64,000 bases of DNA from Actinomycetota bacterium (GTDB lineage: Bacteria > Actinomycetota > Acidimicrobiia > Acidimicrobiales > JAMCPL01): the NCBI GenBank assembly GCA_023379675.1, contig JAMCPL010000030.1, positions 1-64,000 of the forward strand, read 5' to 3'. The notes beneath the pieces were generated by a model. It was given only the letters and a program-made list of their open reading frames with translations. It ran no database searches and was not told the origin of the DNA. The translations under genes were made by a program, and so were the position numbers. Shown piece after piece: positions 41,677 to 48,285 of this stretch (the stretch's first letter is position 1; each line of letters starts with the position of its first letter).

Positions 41677-41818
41677 AAAGTTGGGGCATGGTGCACCAGG
41701 TTTGTGGCATGCGTGTATACTAATGTACTATATTTCGTGAATCACATCGCCTAGAATTGATTAGTTCGATAATGCGTGACTTGCTGTCCATAGCTGAAGT
41801 TGAATGGTTTCACTTAGG

Positions 41819-42661
41819 ATGAGTCGTCCTCATCCCTACCAGGGACGCCAAGCCGCACTGGCCACCAAACACGGGAAACTCGCTCAAATCGCCCCGGCCC
41901 TGCGCTCAGCACCTGGCCTCGACGTCGTCGTAGCTGATATTGATACCGACCAGTTCGGTACCTTTACCGGCGAGGTTTCGAGACCCGGTGACACCCTGGA
42001 GACAGCGATCATCAAAGCTCGAGCCGGCGCCGAAGCATTGGGGCTTCCTCTCGGAATAGCCAGCGAAGGCTCCTTCGGGCCTCATCCTGAGCTTGTACTT
42101 ATACCAGGCAATCTGGAAATCGTAGTACTGGTGGATATGGAGTTGGGCTATCACGTAGTCGAGCAGGTACTGACCACGGACACCAATTTCGCCCATATAC
42201 GGCTTGCGCCGGATCAGTCGCCGGACGACTTCGCATACAATGCCGGATTTCCCACCCACGGCCTGGTTGTCCAACCTTCAAGTGGTCCTGGCCCGGTATG
42301 CAAAGGAATAGTCACTAGTACCGATCTGGCTGCCGCAATTGCCACCGGTGCGGCTGCTTCCGCTGACGGCAAAGCGCTCGTACAGACCGACATGCGTGCC
42401 TGTTACAATCCCACTCGCCAGATCCAGATTACAGCAGCAGCGGAACGTCTTGCGCAACGTCTTACCACCTTATGCCCTGCATGTGGTACACCTGGCTGGG
42501 GCACGGTCGGCAGTGCCGGCGGGTTGCCGTGTGAGATATGCCAGACACCCACCGCACTTACTCGCAGCACCATCTACGGCTGCCCAGCCTGCACATATCG
42601 TGAATCGCACATTGTTCAAGAGCTTGCCCCGGCCGGGCGTTGCCCGATCTGCAACCCGTGA
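41819..42661 (+). CDS. DUF6671-family protein with C-terminal zinc ribbon
   Basis: The 280-residue product begins YQGRQAALATKHGKLAQIAPAL and has FGTFTGEVSRPGDTLE, GIASEGSFGPHPELVLIPGNLE and TNFAHIRLA blocks that I associate with DUF6671. The C-terminal 70 residues hold paired cysteines (CPACG, CEIC, CPAC, CPIC), a likely double zinc ribbon. No biochemical role is known. ATG 41804 is an alternative start. No operon partner is close. Confidence 0.7.
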   Translation: MSRPHPYQGRQAALATKHGKLAQIAPALRSAPGLDVVVADIDTDQFGTFTGEVSRPGDTLETAIIKARAGAEALGLPLGIASEGSFGPHPELVLIPGNLEIVVLVDMELGYHVVEQVLTTDTNFAHIRLAPDQSPDDFAYNAGFPTHGLVVQPSSGPGPVCKGIVTSTDLAAAIATGAAASADGKALVQTDMRACYNPTRQIQITAAAERLAQRLTTLCPACGTPGWGTVGSAGGLPCEICQTPTALTRSTIYGCPACTYRESHIVQELAPAGRCPICNP

Positions 42662-42914
42662 CATGGGTGTGCTGCCAGATAAGCTAGGCAATCCGGTCAG
42701 CCTACCGTGCGATCCATCATGCGACCCGTAGTGCATGGACCGTCTCCGCACATTGGGGCCACCCTCTTCACCGATGCATATTGCCGACCACATACGATAG
42801 TTGTTTCATGTAATATAATACGTATGTATGATTATGGCATCGATATTCATAGGAAACGGTCTACGACACAAGTCACTGGCGATTCACCTTTATGCAGCAG
42901 ATGGGTAGCGTGAC
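42662..42914. other. Intergenic region with AT-rich palindromic patch
   Basis: No gene is seen. At 42812-42835 the sequence AATATAATACGTATGTAT contains ATACGTAT and resembles elements upstream of dabB. It lies about 85 bp before fabI. Confidence 0.3.
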
Positions 42915-43718
42915 ATGCTCACCGGGAAACGCCTTCTGGTAACCGGCGTGGCGACGCCGGACAGCATCGCCAGTGCAGTCGTTGCTCGTGCCCGGTCCGA
43001 AGGAGCCGAGGTAATGGTTGCGGCATTCCCTCGCGATATGAGTACAGCGCGTGATGTGCTGGACGGCATCGACCCCGTTATACCGGTGGTGCCGGTAGAT
43101 GCTACCTCCAGCGAGGACCTTGCATCTCTCGCTCACATCATTGAAGACCGGTGGGGAACTCTCGATGGCATATTGCACGCCATAGCTTACGCTCCTCGCG
43201 CCGCGCTGATGTCAGTGATGGAAGCTGATCCTGATGGAATCGCTGTTGCCATGCAGTCAAGCGTGTGGACCTTTTCTGCACTGGCCCGGCTCCTTGCTGG
43301 GATGGCGCCTCCAGATGGAGCCAGCCTGGTAGGGCTCGACTTCGACAGCGGGCGAGCATGGCCGGTATACAATTGGATGGGTCCCTGCAAGGCAGCGTTA
43401 CGCTCGCTCAGCCAGTACCTCGCTCGTGACCTTGGTCCACAACGGATCCGCTCCAATCTAGTGGCAGCCGGTCCGCTCCGTACCCGTGCAGCCTCGGGAA
43501 TACCGGATTTCGACCTGTTGCTCGAAGCGTGGAGACGGCAGGCTCCCCTCGCCTGGGACTCATCTGATGCTGGCCCAGTGGCTGACACGGTATGCTTTCT
43601 GCTTTCAGACCTCTCGCGAGCTATTACCGGCGAGGTAATCCATGCCGATGGAGGTTTTCATGCTATCGCCACTTCGCTACGGGATGCAGGACAACCGGAA
43701 TCACATCCTGGCGCTTGA
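42915..43718 (+). CDS. fabI: Enoyl-[ACP] reductase, FabI/InhA type
   Basis: NADH-dependent reductase of 267 residues that completes each fatty-acid elongation round. The Rossmann opening is KRLLVTGVATPDSIASAVV, with HAIAYAP replacing the usual HSIAFAP. The catalytic YNWMGPCKAAL follows the Tyr-x6-Lys pattern and resembles InhA; the C-terminal LLSDLSRAITGEVIHADGGFHA is typical. No Shine-Dalgarno or -10 is obvious. Its stop overlaps the -35 hexamer of the dab promoter. Confidence 0.9.
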   Translation: MLTGKRLLVTGVATPDSIASAVVARARSEGAEVMVAAFPRDMSTARDVLDGIDPVIPVVPVDATSSEDLASLAHIIEDRWGTLDGILHAIAYAPRAALMSVMEADPDGIAVAMQSSVWTFSALARLLAGMAPPDGASLVGLDFDSGRAWPVYNWMGPCKAALRSLSQYLARDLGPQRIRSNLVAAGPLRTRAASGIPDFDLLLEAWRRQAPLAWDSSDAGPVADTVCFLLSDLSRAITGEVIHADGGFHAIATSLRDAGQPESHPGA

Positions 43719-43743
43719 CAGTTACTAATATACGAGATATATT
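43715..43743 (+). promoter_or_regulatory. Consensus sigma70-type promoter of dabBA
   Basis: TTGACA (43715-43720), a 17-nt spacer and TATATT (43738-43743) form a near-perfect promoter. Transcription would start near 43750, leaving about 30 nt of leader before dabB. Confidence 0.75.
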
Positions 43744-43744
43744 A
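43726..43744. promoter_or_regulatory. Palindromic operator candidate in the dab promoter
   Basis: TAATATA-CGAGA-TATATTA is a perfect 7-bp inverted repeat whose right arm is the -10 hexamer. A bound protein here would block RNA polymerase, so a repressor is the simplest reading. Confidence 0.5.
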
Positions 43745-43780
43745 CATGAATATTATGACGTATATTAAAGAAGCCTGCAC

Positions 43781-45463
43781 ATGTCATCGCTACTCCACCT
43801 GATCCACCTGATCCACCTGATCCAGCTGCCGCAGTTGGCCATAGCCACACACGGCTCTCCTGCAGGATCAGCTGCCATAGTGCTTGCCACCATACTACCG
43901 TGGCTACTGGCACTTCTTAACCGTCCGCTCGGCCGGCACATGACCGCCAGGCTGGCATGGATCCCTGTTGGTACCTCCATAGCAGCCGGTATTGCGATTG
44001 GCGCGACAGGGCCTTCGGTTGCAGGCATCACCAACTCGCATGGGCATCTGCTGGCCGGTCTGCAAGCAAATACCTACTCGATCACACTGATCGTTCTCGT
44101 TACCTTCGTCGGTGCTCTCGTGCAATCGTTCGCCCTCAGGCACCTTCAATCTGATACCCACGCTGCGAGATTCGCTGCCGGCGCTCACGTGGTGGTCGGG
44201 GCCATGGTAATCGTGGCAGACTCGGCTACTCTTGCCGGATTGGTGATAGGATGGGTGATCGCCGGCATGGCCTTCACAAGTGTACTCGGATACCGGGCGG
44301 AATTGCCTGGCGTCAAGCGCTCTGTGGCAGCCACCCGCCGAGCATTCATGATTGGGGATACCGCTCTTGTAGTAGCTGCGTCCTGGATCATCCTACGATC
44401 AGGGGACGTTTTACTTACCTCGTCACACGACCTGCAGGTTGCGGCAGGTCGCCTTGGTGCAGGAGGGCCGGTTGTGGCCTTACTGGTGGCCGTTTCCGCT
44501 CTGGCTCGCTCGGCCCAGTTCCCGCTCGGACGATGGATGGCAGGGACCGTCAACGCCCCTACACCCGTCTCTGCACTGTTGCACGCCGGGGTCGTCAATG
44601 GTGGAGGCATCCTCCTGGTGCGGATGGCGCCGCTGGAAGATACATCTGTGCCGGCAACACTCATAGTATTCTGCTGTGCATTCATCACGCTGGCATACGG
44701 CATAACGGCCATAAGGGCCAGATCGGACGTGAAGGGTGCTCTGGCCTTGTCGACCCGTGCACAGATGGGATTCATGTTGGCTGAATGTGCTGCCGGGCTT
44801 CCGGTATTCGCCACCGTGCATTTGATCGGGCACGCCATCTACAAGGCCACCTTGTTCTTCGGTTCAGGCAACGGTATTCGCCGACCGGGAACGCGCCCAA
44901 CCAAACCAGTTCATTCGCGCCGGTTGCCGGCAGGTCTGCCGGCTATAGTGGCGGGCATAACGGGTGGCGCGATAACCCTGGGCACGATGTTGATGGTCAT
45001 GAGTAGTCTTGGCGGTTATCGTAGCTGGCCGCTTCTCCTTTTCAGTGGAGTGACGGCAACCGTCGTGGGAAGGGAATGGTGGCTCCGGCATCCGAGAGGA
45101 TGGGGCTGGCCCATGGTGGCCGCCTTTGCATTGGTCGTCCTGCCAGCCATCTATGCCGCGTTGCTTTCCGGCCTTGGCGGATGGCTTGTATCCACCTTAA
45201 GTATGGTTCCTGCAACGCCAATCGGACCGTGGTGGCTCGTCGCGGCCAGCACCGTCGCTGCAGCGTTTTCCTTTGCAGCGTGGCGATGGATGCCTATGAC
45301 GGCTCTATCAATGCTGGTACCGGCTGGAAACCAAGGTGATGTACCTGCACCCCAGAGATTGGCAGGCCTGCGCCTGTGGCGCGTTTCCGCCCGACCCATG
45401 GTATCAAATGGAGATCGGCAACAGCACTCTGGGAACCGCCCGATGGATGGTGACGCGGCATGA
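43781..45463 (+). CDS. dabB: DabB-type proton-conducting subunit of inorganic-carbon transporter
   Basis: NuoL/MrpA-like membrane protein of 560 residues with many hydrophobic helices. The block GRWMAGTVNAPTPVSALLHAGVVNGGGILLVRM is the proton-antiporter signature. In DAB systems DabB couples the proton gradient to a DabA subunit that hydrates CO2 to bicarbonate. The first residues are a 9-bp DNA repeat encoding HLIHLIHLI. The stop overlaps the start of dabA by 4 bases (ATGA), so the stoichiometric pair is translated together. It lies behind a strong promoter. Confidence 0.88.
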   Translation: MSSLLHLIHLIHLIQLPQLAIATHGSPAGSAAIVLATILPWLLALLNRPLGRHMTARLAWIPVGTSIAAGIAIGATGPSVAGITNSHGHLLAGLQANTYSITLIVLVTFVGALVQSFALRHLQSDTHAARFAAGAHVVVGAMVIVADSATLAGLVIGWVIAGMAFTSVLGYRAELPGVKRSVAATRRAFMIGDTALVVAASWIILRSGDVLLTSSHDLQVAAGRLGAGGPVVALLVAVSALARSAQFPLGRWMAGTVNAPTPVSALLHAGVVNGGGILLVRMAPLEDTSVPATLIVFCCAFITLAYGITAIRARSDVKGALALSTRAQMGFMLAECAAGLPVFATVHLIGHAIYKATLFFGSGNGIRRPGTRPTKPVHSRRLPAGLPAIVAGITGGAITLGTMLMVMSSLGGYRSWPLLLFSGVTATVVGREWWLRHPRGWGWPMVAAFALVVLPAIYAALLSGLGGWLVSTLSMVPATPIGPWWLVAASTVAAAFSFAAWRWMPMTALSMLVPAGNQGDVPAPQRLAGLRLWRVSARPMVSNGDRQQHSGNRPMDGDAA

Positions 45464-48285
45464 CCGTTACCGGCGTCCATGCCAGGTCGGCTGACGGTAT
45501 TCCGATCGAGCCACGATCCCAGCCGTCCACCGAGTCACGATCCCAGCTGTCCACCGAGCCACGATCCCAGCTGTCCACCGAGCCACGCGCCGAGTCAATG
45601 GCCGGATCTACGTGGCCTGTCGGGTATATGGAGGACCTGGACGAAGCCGCTAGGATCATCGGCCCGCTATGGCCTCTAGGTACTGCTATAGCGGTGAATC
45701 CGCTGTGGGATTTGCGCCAGTTGCAGTTCTCGCAAGCTATGACACTTCTCGACCGGACATACAGAGTATCCGGCTACCCGCAGGCAGCATTTATCGAGCA
45801 TTCCTATAGTACTGGGCGCATTACTGGCTCAGATCTGATCAAGGCGCTGGAGCTACTCGACCAAGCTCCAATGGACGCAAGACCCGATTCGATCTGCCGG
45901 CACCTCCACGACGGTGCCTCCATACTCACTCCATCTGAGCATTATGACACAGTACATGGTACCAGGCTTGCCAGTGAGGTCAATGAGATGGTAGCTGCAT
46001 GGTGTGCTGCATTTGCCGGTGGCATCCTGCCGGACAGGACCGGATCAGGATTTTACCAGTCGTGGCGAACTGGCATGCAGCAAGGCTACCGCATCCGTGG
46101 GCGGTTGGGCGCTCGCGGGCGCAGTGTGATCAAGTCGCTTGACGCTGATGCCGCCATGGCAGCTCAGCAGTGCCTGTCTCGGCTCGGAGTGCCAGCCAGC
46201 CAGCGTGTTGCAGTTCTAGCTGCTCATCTGGTACGTATGCCGGGCTGGGCCGGCCATGCCAAATGGCGCTCGAATTGGGCGCCAGAGGGCTACGGTGGAC
46301 CAGCCATAGATCTGGTAAATTACATGGCCGTTCGCCTAGCAATCGAGACAGCACTCCTGGCGGCCGTCCTTCCGGCCGCTGTTCCAGACTTCTTTCCAGG
46401 CCCGATACCGACCCCACGCATGGCCCCAGCCCCAGCCACGGGCACCTCTGAGCATCCCAGCTTCCACACAGTTTCCTTCACGGGCCCAAATTCCTATGCG
46501 CACCCAGCCTCACCGGCCGGCTCGTCAAACGAGCCGGCATCGGTCTCCCGCTCGTTCCCGGTGCAGGCTCCATTGGAAGCAGGTCTTCCGGCCCGACTCG
46601 CCCTGCCGACGGAAGTGTCCACGAGACTTGCTAATTTGGCACGTCACGAGGCAGCCGAAGTATGGCTGCTCGCTTACGAGGTTCATTGGTACAAAGAGTT
46701 GCTGGATCGGATCGCCGGCAAGGCGCTCGATGGGGATGATGGCGCCAGCGGAGCAGGAATCTCTCTGCCGGATGCGCAAGCCGTGTTCTGCATCGATGTG
46801 CGTTCGGAAGGAATCCGTAGGCACCTGGAAAGTGTAGGGCCTTATGAGACCTTTGGATTTGCGGGTTTCTTCGCACTGCCGTTGCGCTTCCATGCGTGGG
46901 GTGCGGAGGATGCATTTGATGCCTGCCCTGTCCTGTTGCAACCTGCTATTCACATGGCGGAACAGCCATTAAATGGCATGAGCAAAGAAGCATGGCGATC
47001 CGTGACGGGCCGGCAGGCTCGCGCCGCGTTCGGCAAGGCCAGAGAGTCAGCCCATCATGGTACGGTGGCTCCTTTCATGCTTGCAGAGGCCGGAGGCTTC
47101 TTTGCGGTCCCGCTTGCCCTTGCGCGTACCCTGGCTCCCCGTGCATTCAGGCGCGCGAGGGATATCTCGGGCCGCCTGTTCGCCCCGCCTGTACCGGCAT
47201 CTATCACTGCCGACCCTGCCCTTGGTGCTCTCAGCGATGACGATCGAGCAACCTACGCGGAATCGACTCTTGTTGCAATGGGTCTGACCAGTGGATTCGC
47301 TCCGGTAATACTGCTGTGTGGTCACGGTGCCACCTCCGAGAACAACCCTTATGCTTCCGCGCTGGACTGTGGGGCGTGCGGAGGGAACCGGGGCGCTTCG
47401 AGCGCACGATCGGCGGCGGCCATATTCAACATGCCGGGGACCCGGTACCGGCTGGCTGATCGCGGCATCGACATCCCGCCGGAAACGTTGTTTGTCGCTG
47501 CTGAGCACGACACCGTGACGGATCATGTCATCATACTCGATCGTCACCTCGTACCGGCATCCTGGCAGCCGCGGTTGGATCGCCTTGAAGCTGACCTCGA
47601 GACAGCCGGGAGGCTTCTGGCTACCGAACGGGCAGGATCGTTGCCTGGAAGGCAACGGCGAGATGGCTCTCGCTCTGCGCGCACCAGCGCCACGGATTGG
47701 GCGCAAGTACGCCCTGAATGGGCATTGGCCCGAAACGCTGCATTTGTCGTAGGTCCTCGGAACATGACTGCTGGCATTGATCTGGAACGGCGCGTGTTCC
47801 TGCACTCTTATGATTCCTCCATAGACAAAGATGGTTCGGCGCTCGAGACCATCCTCACTGCCCCGATGGTGGTCGCCCACTGGATCAACGCGCAGTATTA
47901 TTTCTCTGCAGTTGCTCCAGAGGTCTTCTCCTCCGGCGATAAGACTATCCACAATGTGGTGGCTGGAATCGGAGTGCTGCGTGGAGCAGGTGGCGACCTC
48001 GGAGTTGGCCTCCCACTCCAGTCGCTATTCGATGGCAAGCAGCTCTATCACGAACCAATGCGCCTTCTGGTGATCGTGGAGGCCCCGCTGGACCGTATAG
48101 ACAAAATTATCGCCCGCAACCCGGTGCTCTTGGACCTTTTCGATGGACGATGGGTGCACTTGATCGCACGTAATGGAGCAGGGATGCCATGGATGATGCG
48201 CCACCCAGGAGGTAAGTGGGATGCGGATTGGCCGCCGGCGAATCGGCAAGCTGCCTCCAATCCCGCCATCCAAGGAGGTCAATGA
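45460..48285 (+). CDS. dabA: DabA-type inorganic-carbon transporter subunit (DUF2309)
   Basis: Large peripheral subunit, 941 residues. It has a beta-carbonic-anhydrase-like zinc site: FCIDVRSEG gives Cys444 and Asp446, CGHGATSEN gives His622 and LDCGACGGNRG gives Cys637. The H-to-C spacing of 15 matches that known for DabA. DAB activity traps CO2 as bicarbonate using the proton motive force. The N-terminus has an 8-residue tandem repeat (PRSQLSTE) and there is an Ala/Pro/Ser-rich insert near 310-370. The 3' end overlaps the convergent ctaB gene by 7 bp. Confidence 0.9.
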   Translation: MTVTGVHARSADGIPIEPRSQPSTESRSQLSTEPRSQLSTEPRAESMAGSTWPVGYMEDLDEAARIIGPLWPLGTAIAVNPLWDLRQLQFSQAMTLLDRTYRVSGYPQAAFIEHSYSTGRITGSDLIKALELLDQAPMDARPDSICRHLHDGASILTPSEHYDTVHGTRLASEVNEMVAAWCAAFAGGILPDRTGSGFYQSWRTGMQQGYRIRGRLGARGRSVIKSLDADAAMAAQQCLSRLGVPASQRVAVLAAHLVRMPGWAGHAKWRSNWAPEGYGGPAIDLVNYMAVRLAIETALLAAVLPAAVPDFFPGPIPTPRMAPAPATGTSEHPSFHTVSFTGPNSYAHPASPAGSSNEPASVSRSFPVQAPLEAGLPARLALPTEVSTRLANLARHEAAEVWLLAYEVHWYKELLDRIAGKALDGDDGASGAGISLPDAQAVFCIDVRSEGIRRHLESVGPYETFGFAGFFALPLRFHAWGAEDAFDACPVLLQPAIHMAEQPLNGMSKEAWRSVTGRQARAAFGKARESAHHGTVAPFMLAEAGGFFAVPLALARTLAPRAFRRARDISGRLFAPPVPASITADPALGALSDDDRATYAESTLVAMGLTSGFAPVILLCGHGATSENNPYASALDCGACGGNRGASSARSAAAIFNMPGTRYRLADRGIDIPPETLFVAAEHDTVTDHVIILDRHLVPASWQPRLDRLEADLETAGRLLATERAGSLPGRQRRDGSRSARTSATDWAQVRPEWALARNAAFVVGPRNMTAGIDLERRVFLHSYDSSIDKDGSALETILTAPMVVAHWINAQYYFSAVAPEVFSSGDKTIHNVVAGIGVLRGAGGDLGVGLPLQSLFDGKQLYHEPMRLLVIVEAPLDRIDKIIARNPVLLDLFDGRWVHLIARNGAGMPWMMRHPGGKWDADWPPANRQAASNPAIQGGQ
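45511..45594 (+). repeat. 24-bp tandem repeat in dabA
   Basis: Three and a half units of CCACGATCCCAGCTGTCCAC plus CGAG encode the 8-residue repeats near the DabA N-terminus. Confidence 0.85.

What the first reader, a model, noticed from the sequence alone, without database searches (positions are those of the whole stretch)
43715..48285. dabBA carbon-uptake operon behind a consensus promoter with a built-in palindrome
Seen: TTGACA-17 nt-TATATT lies directly upstream of dabB, and the 19-bp palindrome TAATATACGAGATATATTA covers the spacer and the -10. dabB and dabA overlap by ATGA, and DabA keeps all four expected zinc-site residues. Known: DAB systems trap CO2 as bicarbonate with proton motive force. 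Inference: a repressor responding to CO2 or pH switches the operon in an autotrophic or mixotrophic, probably acidophilic actinobacterium, a setting in which DAB regulation is little described.
Basis: partly seen in the sequence, partly recalled or inferred. Interest (0 to 1): 0.62.

Follow-up and report, generated by a model that had tools for sequence, protein, structure and literature searches.

The report
CO2-uptake operon with shared operators
A bacterium in which no RuBisCO and no common carbonic anhydrase was found carries a proton-driven CO2-to-bicarbonate pump whose promoter shares a likely repressor site with a neighbouring gene, next to a conserved, unstudied protein that travels with this pump in three bacterial phyla.

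Summary
TTGACA-17-TATATT lies at 43715-43743, the 7-bp-arm palindrome at 43726-43744, and dabB and dabA overlap by ATGA. DabA keeps the zinc ligands and key catalytic residues of the solved DAB2 complex. The reading needs correcting. The palindrome is unremarkable for such AT-rich DNA (arms this long in 11% of shuffles), and three congeners lack it. What is conserved is a different, overlapping element: a 30-bp tandem dyad, AYG-N10-CATG-N10-CRT, at 43732-43761, at the same distance from the -10 in all five congeneric genomes. A second copy at 42794-42823 precedes the upstream fabI-like gene. These are the only two non-coding matches in the 2.34-Mb genome. In related Actinobacteria a single dyad lies between dabB and a divergent MarR-like winged-helix gene, the likely regulator; in this genome that gene sits on another contig. 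Autotrophy is not supported: no RuBisCO, beta-CA or alpha-CA was found. The pump probably supplies bicarbonate for ordinary carboxylations, as MpsAB does in Staphylococcus aureus. The upstream DUF6671 gene is a recurrent dab neighbour in Actinomycetota, Pseudomonadota and Bacteroidota, modelled as a HAM1/Maf-like domain plus zinc ribbons. Binding and CO2 response are inferred, not shown.

The parts
41723..41738 (+). Single dyad ATG-N10-CGT (ATGTACTATATTTCGT) upstream of the DUF6671 gene; weakest of the sites
   Evidence: also present in sister genome L030 (ATGTATCATATTTCGT); a dyad occurs in 19% of shuffles of this region, so not significant alone
41804..42661 (+). DUF6671 gene (285 aa), recurrent neighbour of dabBA; modelled N-terminal HAM1/Maf (ITPase)-like domain plus C-terminal zinc ribbons with 8 invariant Cys
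   Evidence: PF20376, 146 bits; neighbour in three phyla; model pLDDT 94.2; best folds HAM1/Maf, weak
42794..42823 (+). Tandem dyad ACGATAGTTGTTTCATGTAATATAATACGT upstream of the fabI-like gene, same architecture as the dab operator
   Evidence: one of two non-coding matches in the genome; kept in L030; in 0.7% of shuffles of the region
42915..43718 (+). FabI/InhA-like enoyl-ACP reductase (267 aa), one of two FabI-like paralogues of the genome; neighbour of dab in several relatives
   Evidence: best model FabI, 281 bits, below its 299-bit cut-off; other paralogue at C22, 45% identical
43715..43720 (+). -35 hexamer TTGACA, overlapping the fabI stop codon
43726..43744 (+).
   Evidence: arms kept only in sister genome L030
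43732..43761 (+). Conserved tandem operator: dyads 43732-43747 (ACGAGATATATTACAT) and 43746-43761 (ATGAATATTATGACGT) sharing CATG, 14-bp period
43738..43743 (+). -10 hexamer TATATT, inside the first dyad
43781..45463 (+). dabB (560 aa), membrane proton-channel subunit; key channel residues kept (S264, H268, K318, S324, H347, H351, K355)
   Evidence: (PF00361; DabB2 of 9rd0 is best PDB match, E 5.6e-33)
45460..48285 (+). dabA (941 aa), beta-carbonic-anhydrase-like subunit; C444, D446, R448, H622, C637 and finger Glu E543 kept
   Evidence: PF10070, 766 bits; 9rd0 DabA2, E 2.4e-113

Best explanation
dabBA encodes a two-subunit DAB complex, a proton-motive-force-driven one-way carbonic anhydrase. 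In this actinobacterium without detected RuBisCO it supplies cytoplasmic bicarbonate for ordinary carboxylases rather than feeding a Calvin cycle. The operon is read from the promoter at 43715-43743. A MarR-like winged-helix protein, encoded on another contig, most likely represses it by binding the tandem dyad at 43732-43761, which covers the -10 and the expected start site. The same protein probably controls the fabI-like gene through the twin site at 42794-42823. DUF6671 is probably a functional partner of DAB. Shown: the sequence features, catalytic residues, conservation and gene neighbourhoods. Inferred: binding, repression, the signal, and the physiological role.
For: DabA and DabB match the solved DAB2 complex, with the Zn ligands, Asp-Arg dyad, finger Glu and seven of the tested DabB channel residues kept (PMC13144422). 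No RuBisCO or beta-CA in this genome or four congeners, and no alpha-CA in this genome. Across 59 genomes of the order, 3 of 14 DabA-bearing genomes have a beta-CA against 30 of 45 without DabA (Fisher p 0.005). A winged-helix gene lies beside dabB or dabA in 21 of 45 dab loci with both flanks, nearly always divergent from dabB. Across 27 dab upstream regions the dyad A[CT]G-N10-C[AG]T occurs in 18 (4.1 expected, at most 8 in 60 shuffles) and spacing 10 is the clear peak. The tandem form is in the window, L030, G001, G002 and G004 at the same distance from the -10. It then appeared upstream of fabI, a region not used to define it, and the other 9 genome matches lie in open frames of 100-1009 codons.
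Against: The winged-helix gene is not linked to dab in this genome. The dyad was found after looking, and many regions are related by descent. The genome is a 91%-complete draft, so absences are provisional; gamma-CA and other CA classes and non-Calvin CO2 fixation were not tested. The beta-CA anti-correlation weakens to p 0.07 when congeners are collapsed. No expression or binding data exist. R182 and K235 of DabB2 are replaced by M190 and R243 (alignment-dependent).
Confidence: 0.6

Rival explanations
1. One reading: the spacer palindrome TAATATACGAGATATATTA is the operator of a CO2- or pH-responsive repressor in an autotroph or mixotroph.
For: It is real, unique in the genome as a perfect match and placed over the -10; its arms survive in the sister genome and lengthen to 8 bp there (TAATATAC-GAA-GTATATTA).
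Against: Arms of this length occur in 10.7% of shuffles of the region; the site is absent from G001, G002 and G004; the sister genome is about 90% identical throughout; no RuBisCO.
Confidence: 0.1
2. The dyad is a site for a different regulator (for example a LysR-type or global factor), and the winged-helix gene is only a frequent neighbour.
For: The winged-helix gene is not adjacent to dab in any of the five genomes of the genus, yet the operator persists. At least one dab locus without a detected winged-helix gene has similar half-sites (L053).
Against: The winged-helix gene is the regulator gene that was seen to recur at actinobacterial dab loci, and its own upstream regions carry TTCACGA/TTTCATG half-sites. 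Neighbourhoods were not scanned exhaustively for other regulators.
Confidence: 0.22
3. Constitutive promoter: the AT-rich symmetry reflects promoter composition only, and dabBA is a housekeeping bicarbonate source that is not switched.
For: Near-consensus promoter; no beta- or alpha-CA found, so constant expression would make sense.
Against: Twin tandem sites at fabI and dabB, the only non-coding copies in the genome, conserved in position.
Confidence: 0.12
4. The complex works as a sodium-bicarbonate importer, as proposed for MpsAB, rather than as a vectorial carbonic anhydrase.
For: MpsAB is a homologue for which a sodium/bicarbonate mode has been argued (PMC13144422).
Against: The Zn-site residues and the proton-path residues checked are kept; at acid pH little bicarbonate exists outside to import (general chemistry; habitat not shown).
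Confidence: 0.1

Closest known systems
DAB2 (DabA2-DabB2) of Halothiobacillus neapolitanus, PDB 9rd0
   Same: Same two subunits, same Zn site (C351, H524, C539 with D353-R355), finger Glu444 and proton-path residues
   Different: No RuBisCO found here; DabB lacks the equivalents of R182 and K235 (M190, R243); dabA follows dabB with a 4-bp overlap; a winged-helix regulator gene near dab in relatives
MpsAB(C) of Staphylococcus aureus
   Same: DAB homologue in a non-autotroph without carbonic anhydrase; MpsAB and CA seldom coexist (PMC8552792, PMC6689103, PMC8567241)
   Different: Different phylum; MpsAB argued to be sodium-coupled; no DUF6671 or winged-helix partner was examined there
Fused single-subunit DAB of Acidimicrobium ferrooxidans (named in PMC13144422)
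   Same: Probably the same order: G037, whose size fits that species from memory, is placed in the same order and has a 1409-aa DabA-containing open frame
   Different: Here dabB and dabA are separate genes overlapping by ATGA; G037 also has RuBisCO

Membership tests
DAB / DAC inorganic carbon uptake complex | DabA family PF10070 over its full length | tested here: met
   765.8 bits against cut-off 25, profile 2-747 of 747
DAB / DAC inorganic carbon uptake complex | Zn ligands and Asp-Arg dyad of DabA (C351, D353, R355, H524, C539) | tested here: met
   C444, D446, R448, H622, C637
DAB / DAC inorganic carbon uptake complex | Finger-motif glutamate (E444 of DabA2) | tested here: met
   E543
DAB / DAC inorganic carbon uptake complex | NuoL-like partner DabB encoded alongside, with proton-path residues S256, H260, K310, S316, H339, H343, K347 | tested here: met
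   S264, H268, K318, S324, H347, H351, K355
DAB / DAC inorganic carbon uptake complex | Regulatory ion pairs R182, D185, K235 of DabB2 | tested here: inconclusive
   D193 kept, K235 is R243, R182 probably M190; the alignment is gapped here
DAB / DAC inorganic carbon uptake complex | PMF-dependent CO2 to bicarbonate conversion; rescue of CA-deficient E. coli | not testable with these tools
   Needs an experiment
Calvin-cycle CO2-concentrating mechanism | RuBisCO in the same genome | tested here: not met
   none in G000 or the four congeners; genome 91% complete
MarR-like winged-helix regulator as the operator's binder | Winged-helix domain and genetic linkage to the operator | tested here: inconclusive
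   MarR_2 23.7 bits (cut-off 27) for the genome's own copy, 28.1 for a relative; linked in relatives, unlinked here
HAM1/Maf (ITPase) fold for DUF6671 | Fold similarity and substrate-site residues | tested here: inconclusive
   best PDB match HAM1 TM0159, E 0.009, TM 0.28/0.40, with Maf proteins among the next; no sequence match; catalytic residues not mapped

The most novel reading that the evidence does not exclude
DAB has an overlooked third partner, DUF6671: a HAM1/Maf-like domain with zinc ribbons that travels with dabA in Actinomycetota, Pseudomonadota and Bacteroidota and may assemble, metallate or gate the pump. In Actinobacteria the module also has its own switch, a small MarR-like winged-helix protein acting on ACG-N10-CGT dyads at the dab and fabI promoters, linking bicarbonate supply to fatty-acid synthesis.
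Probability: 0.35. Interest if true: 0.72.

Novelty: new variant of a known kind. Interest (0 to 1): 0.5.

Why it matters
Nothing on how DAB pumps are regulated in actinobacteria was found in the library searched, and DUF6671 appears in none of its papers. A specific operator, a specific candidate regulator and a specific partner gene make DAB regulation in actinobacteria directly testable. The genome also adds a case of DAB apparently standing in for carbonic anhydrase in an organism without RuBisCO, as reported for Firmicutes.

Tried and rejected
The spacer palindrome as operator: rejected on conservation and shuffle tests. Calvin-cycle autotrophy: no RuBisCO. A regulon from palindrome near-matches in the genome: contexts did not resemble the dab promoter; one (L114, G000:C16:1471) is part of a different, larger inverted repeat. 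DUF6671 by sequence against the PDB and Pfam: only weak zinc-finger matches. Literature searches for DAB regulation and for DUF6671 gave nothing usable. A look-up of an Acidimicrobium accession failed because it is not in the collections.

Full report
What is there. The window lies in a 2.34-Mb, 33-contig draft genome, 91% complete. Pfam and the solved DAB2 complex identify 43781-45463 as dabB and 45460-48285 as dabA. Residue by residue, DabA keeps the zinc ligands, the Asp-Arg dyad and the finger glutamate described for DabA2 (C444, D446, R448, H622, C637, E543). DabB keeps S264, H268, K318, S324, H347, H351 and K355 of the proposed proton path (PMC13144422). The -35 overlaps the stop of a FabI/InhA-like gene (42915-43718), and a DUF6671 gene (41804-42661) lies before that. 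ctaB converges from the other side and overlaps dabA by 7 bp.

Is the palindrome special? It is unique in the window and, as a perfect match, in the genome. But the 62-nt region is only 29% GC, and 10.7% of its dinucleotide shuffles contain arms of 7 bp or more. The sister genome G003 (L030) keeps the arms, but its DNA is 90.7% identical over the whole locus and about 87% over this spacer, so this says little. In three other congeners (G001, G002, G004) the palindrome is absent.

What is conserved instead. Aligned on the -10, the dab promoters of G002 and G004 read ACGTAATATAATTCATGATATGAATATC[AG]T, that of G001 reads ACGTATTATAATTCATGATATGAATATCAT, and the window reads ACGAGATATATTACATGAATATTATGACGT. 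All are AYG-N10-CATG-N10-CRT, that is two 16-bp dyads sharing CATG with a 14-bp period. In more distant Actinobacteria a single dyad of the type ACGAT-N6-ATCGT sits 2 nt after the -10 (L031, L034, L038; L147 with ACGAG-N6-TTCGT). In L093 a comparable dyad sits in the spacer between -35 and -10. Over 27 dab upstream regions, A[CT]G-N10-C[AG]T occurs in 18, against 4.1 expected and at most 8 in 60 shuffles, with the peak at spacing 10. Many of these regions are related by descent, so the shuffle comparison overstates independence.

A test not used to define the motif. The tandem pattern was taken from dab promoters. Scanning the genome gave 11 matches (17 for the reversed control pattern), so by count it is not enriched. 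Nine lie within open frames of 100-1009 codons. The only two in non-coding, AT-rich DNA are 43732-43761 and 42794-42823, 938 bp apart, before dabB and before the fabI-like gene. Both are kept in L030. A single dyad before DUF6671 (41723-41738) is suggestive only (19% of shuffles have one).

Candidate regulator. In 21 of 45 dab loci with enough flank, a small winged-helix gene with a MarR-like domain lies nearby, nearly always divergent from dabB (L060 is co-directional and L041 has it beyond dabA). The order in several relatives is DUF6671(-), fabI(+), winged helix(-), dabB(+), dabA(+) (G038/L147, L031, L034, L040). In the window's genus the winged-helix gene lies elsewhere (G000:C31:2226). 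There it stands divergent from purK, a bicarbonate-using enzyme, and before genes for an Fe-S carrier and a methylmalonyl-CoA mutase. The family is about 95-135 aa with invariant N-H-x-H and R-H motifs and no separate ligand domain evident from its length. That it binds the dyads is inference.

Physiology. No RuBisCO was found in this genome or four congeners, no beta-CA in the same five and no alpha-CA in this one. Across the order sample, beta-CA occurs in 3 of 14 DabA-bearing genomes and 30 of 45 others (p 0.005; 0.07 with congeners collapsed). This parallels Firmicutes, where MpsAB and CA rarely coexist and each can replace the other (PMC8552792). The likeliest role is therefore bicarbonate supply for anaplerosis, fatty-acid and purine synthesis. 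The genome is a draft, and gamma-CA and non-Calvin fixation pathways were not tested.

DUF6671. In 396 genomes of the phylum, DUF6671 occurs in 8 and DabA in 23, with 6 shared (p 5e-7; 5 of 6 within a few kb). Among 45 dab loci with flanks, 20 carry it. Carriers include Micromonospora, Pseudonocardia and Nocardiopsis, several Alpha- and Gammaproteobacteria with the gene about 50 nt after the dabA match, and a Bacteroidetes MAG. AlphaFold gives pLDDT 94.2. The best PDB folds are HAM1 and Maf nucleotide pyrophosphatases, but weakly (E 0.009, TM 0.28/0.40). Eight invariant cysteines form C-terminal CxxC pairs. No paper in the library names the family.

Verdict. The operator is probably a different, overlapping element, the organism is probably not a Calvin-cycle autotroph, and the most novel thing at the locus is the conserved neighbour gene.

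Noticed in passing
window 41804-42661: DUF6671 (PF20376) is a recurrent dab neighbour in three phyla; modelled HAM1/Maf-like fold plus zinc ribbons; function unknown.
   Followed up: yes
window 43794-43828 and 45507-45587: Tandem repeats at the 5' ends of dabB (9 bp x 3.9, Leu-Ile-His) and dabA (24 bp x 3.4); the sister genome L030 has an 18-bp shorter dabB start. In-frame length variation, cause unknown.
   Followed up: partly
L145 2166-2570 (G000:C31): The orphan winged-helix gene stands divergent from purK and upstream of an ErpA-like Fe-S carrier gene and a methylmalonyl-CoA mutase gene; PurK uses bicarbonate.
   Followed up: partly
L142 2277-2306 and 3490-3519 (G002:C50): Two near-identical copies of the tandem operator about 1.2 kb apart between DUF6671 and dabB; G002 also holds a second dab locus (C64).
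   Followed up: no
G037, G010, G014 and others: Many actinobacterial dabA frames are about 1300-1409 aa long, fitting natural DabB-DabA or other domain fusions; not resolved.
   Followed up: no
L114 near 1471 (G000:C16): About 11-bp inverted repeat ATTGACATACG...CGTATGTCAAT over a promoter-like site before a small ORF; possibly another operator.
   Followed up: no
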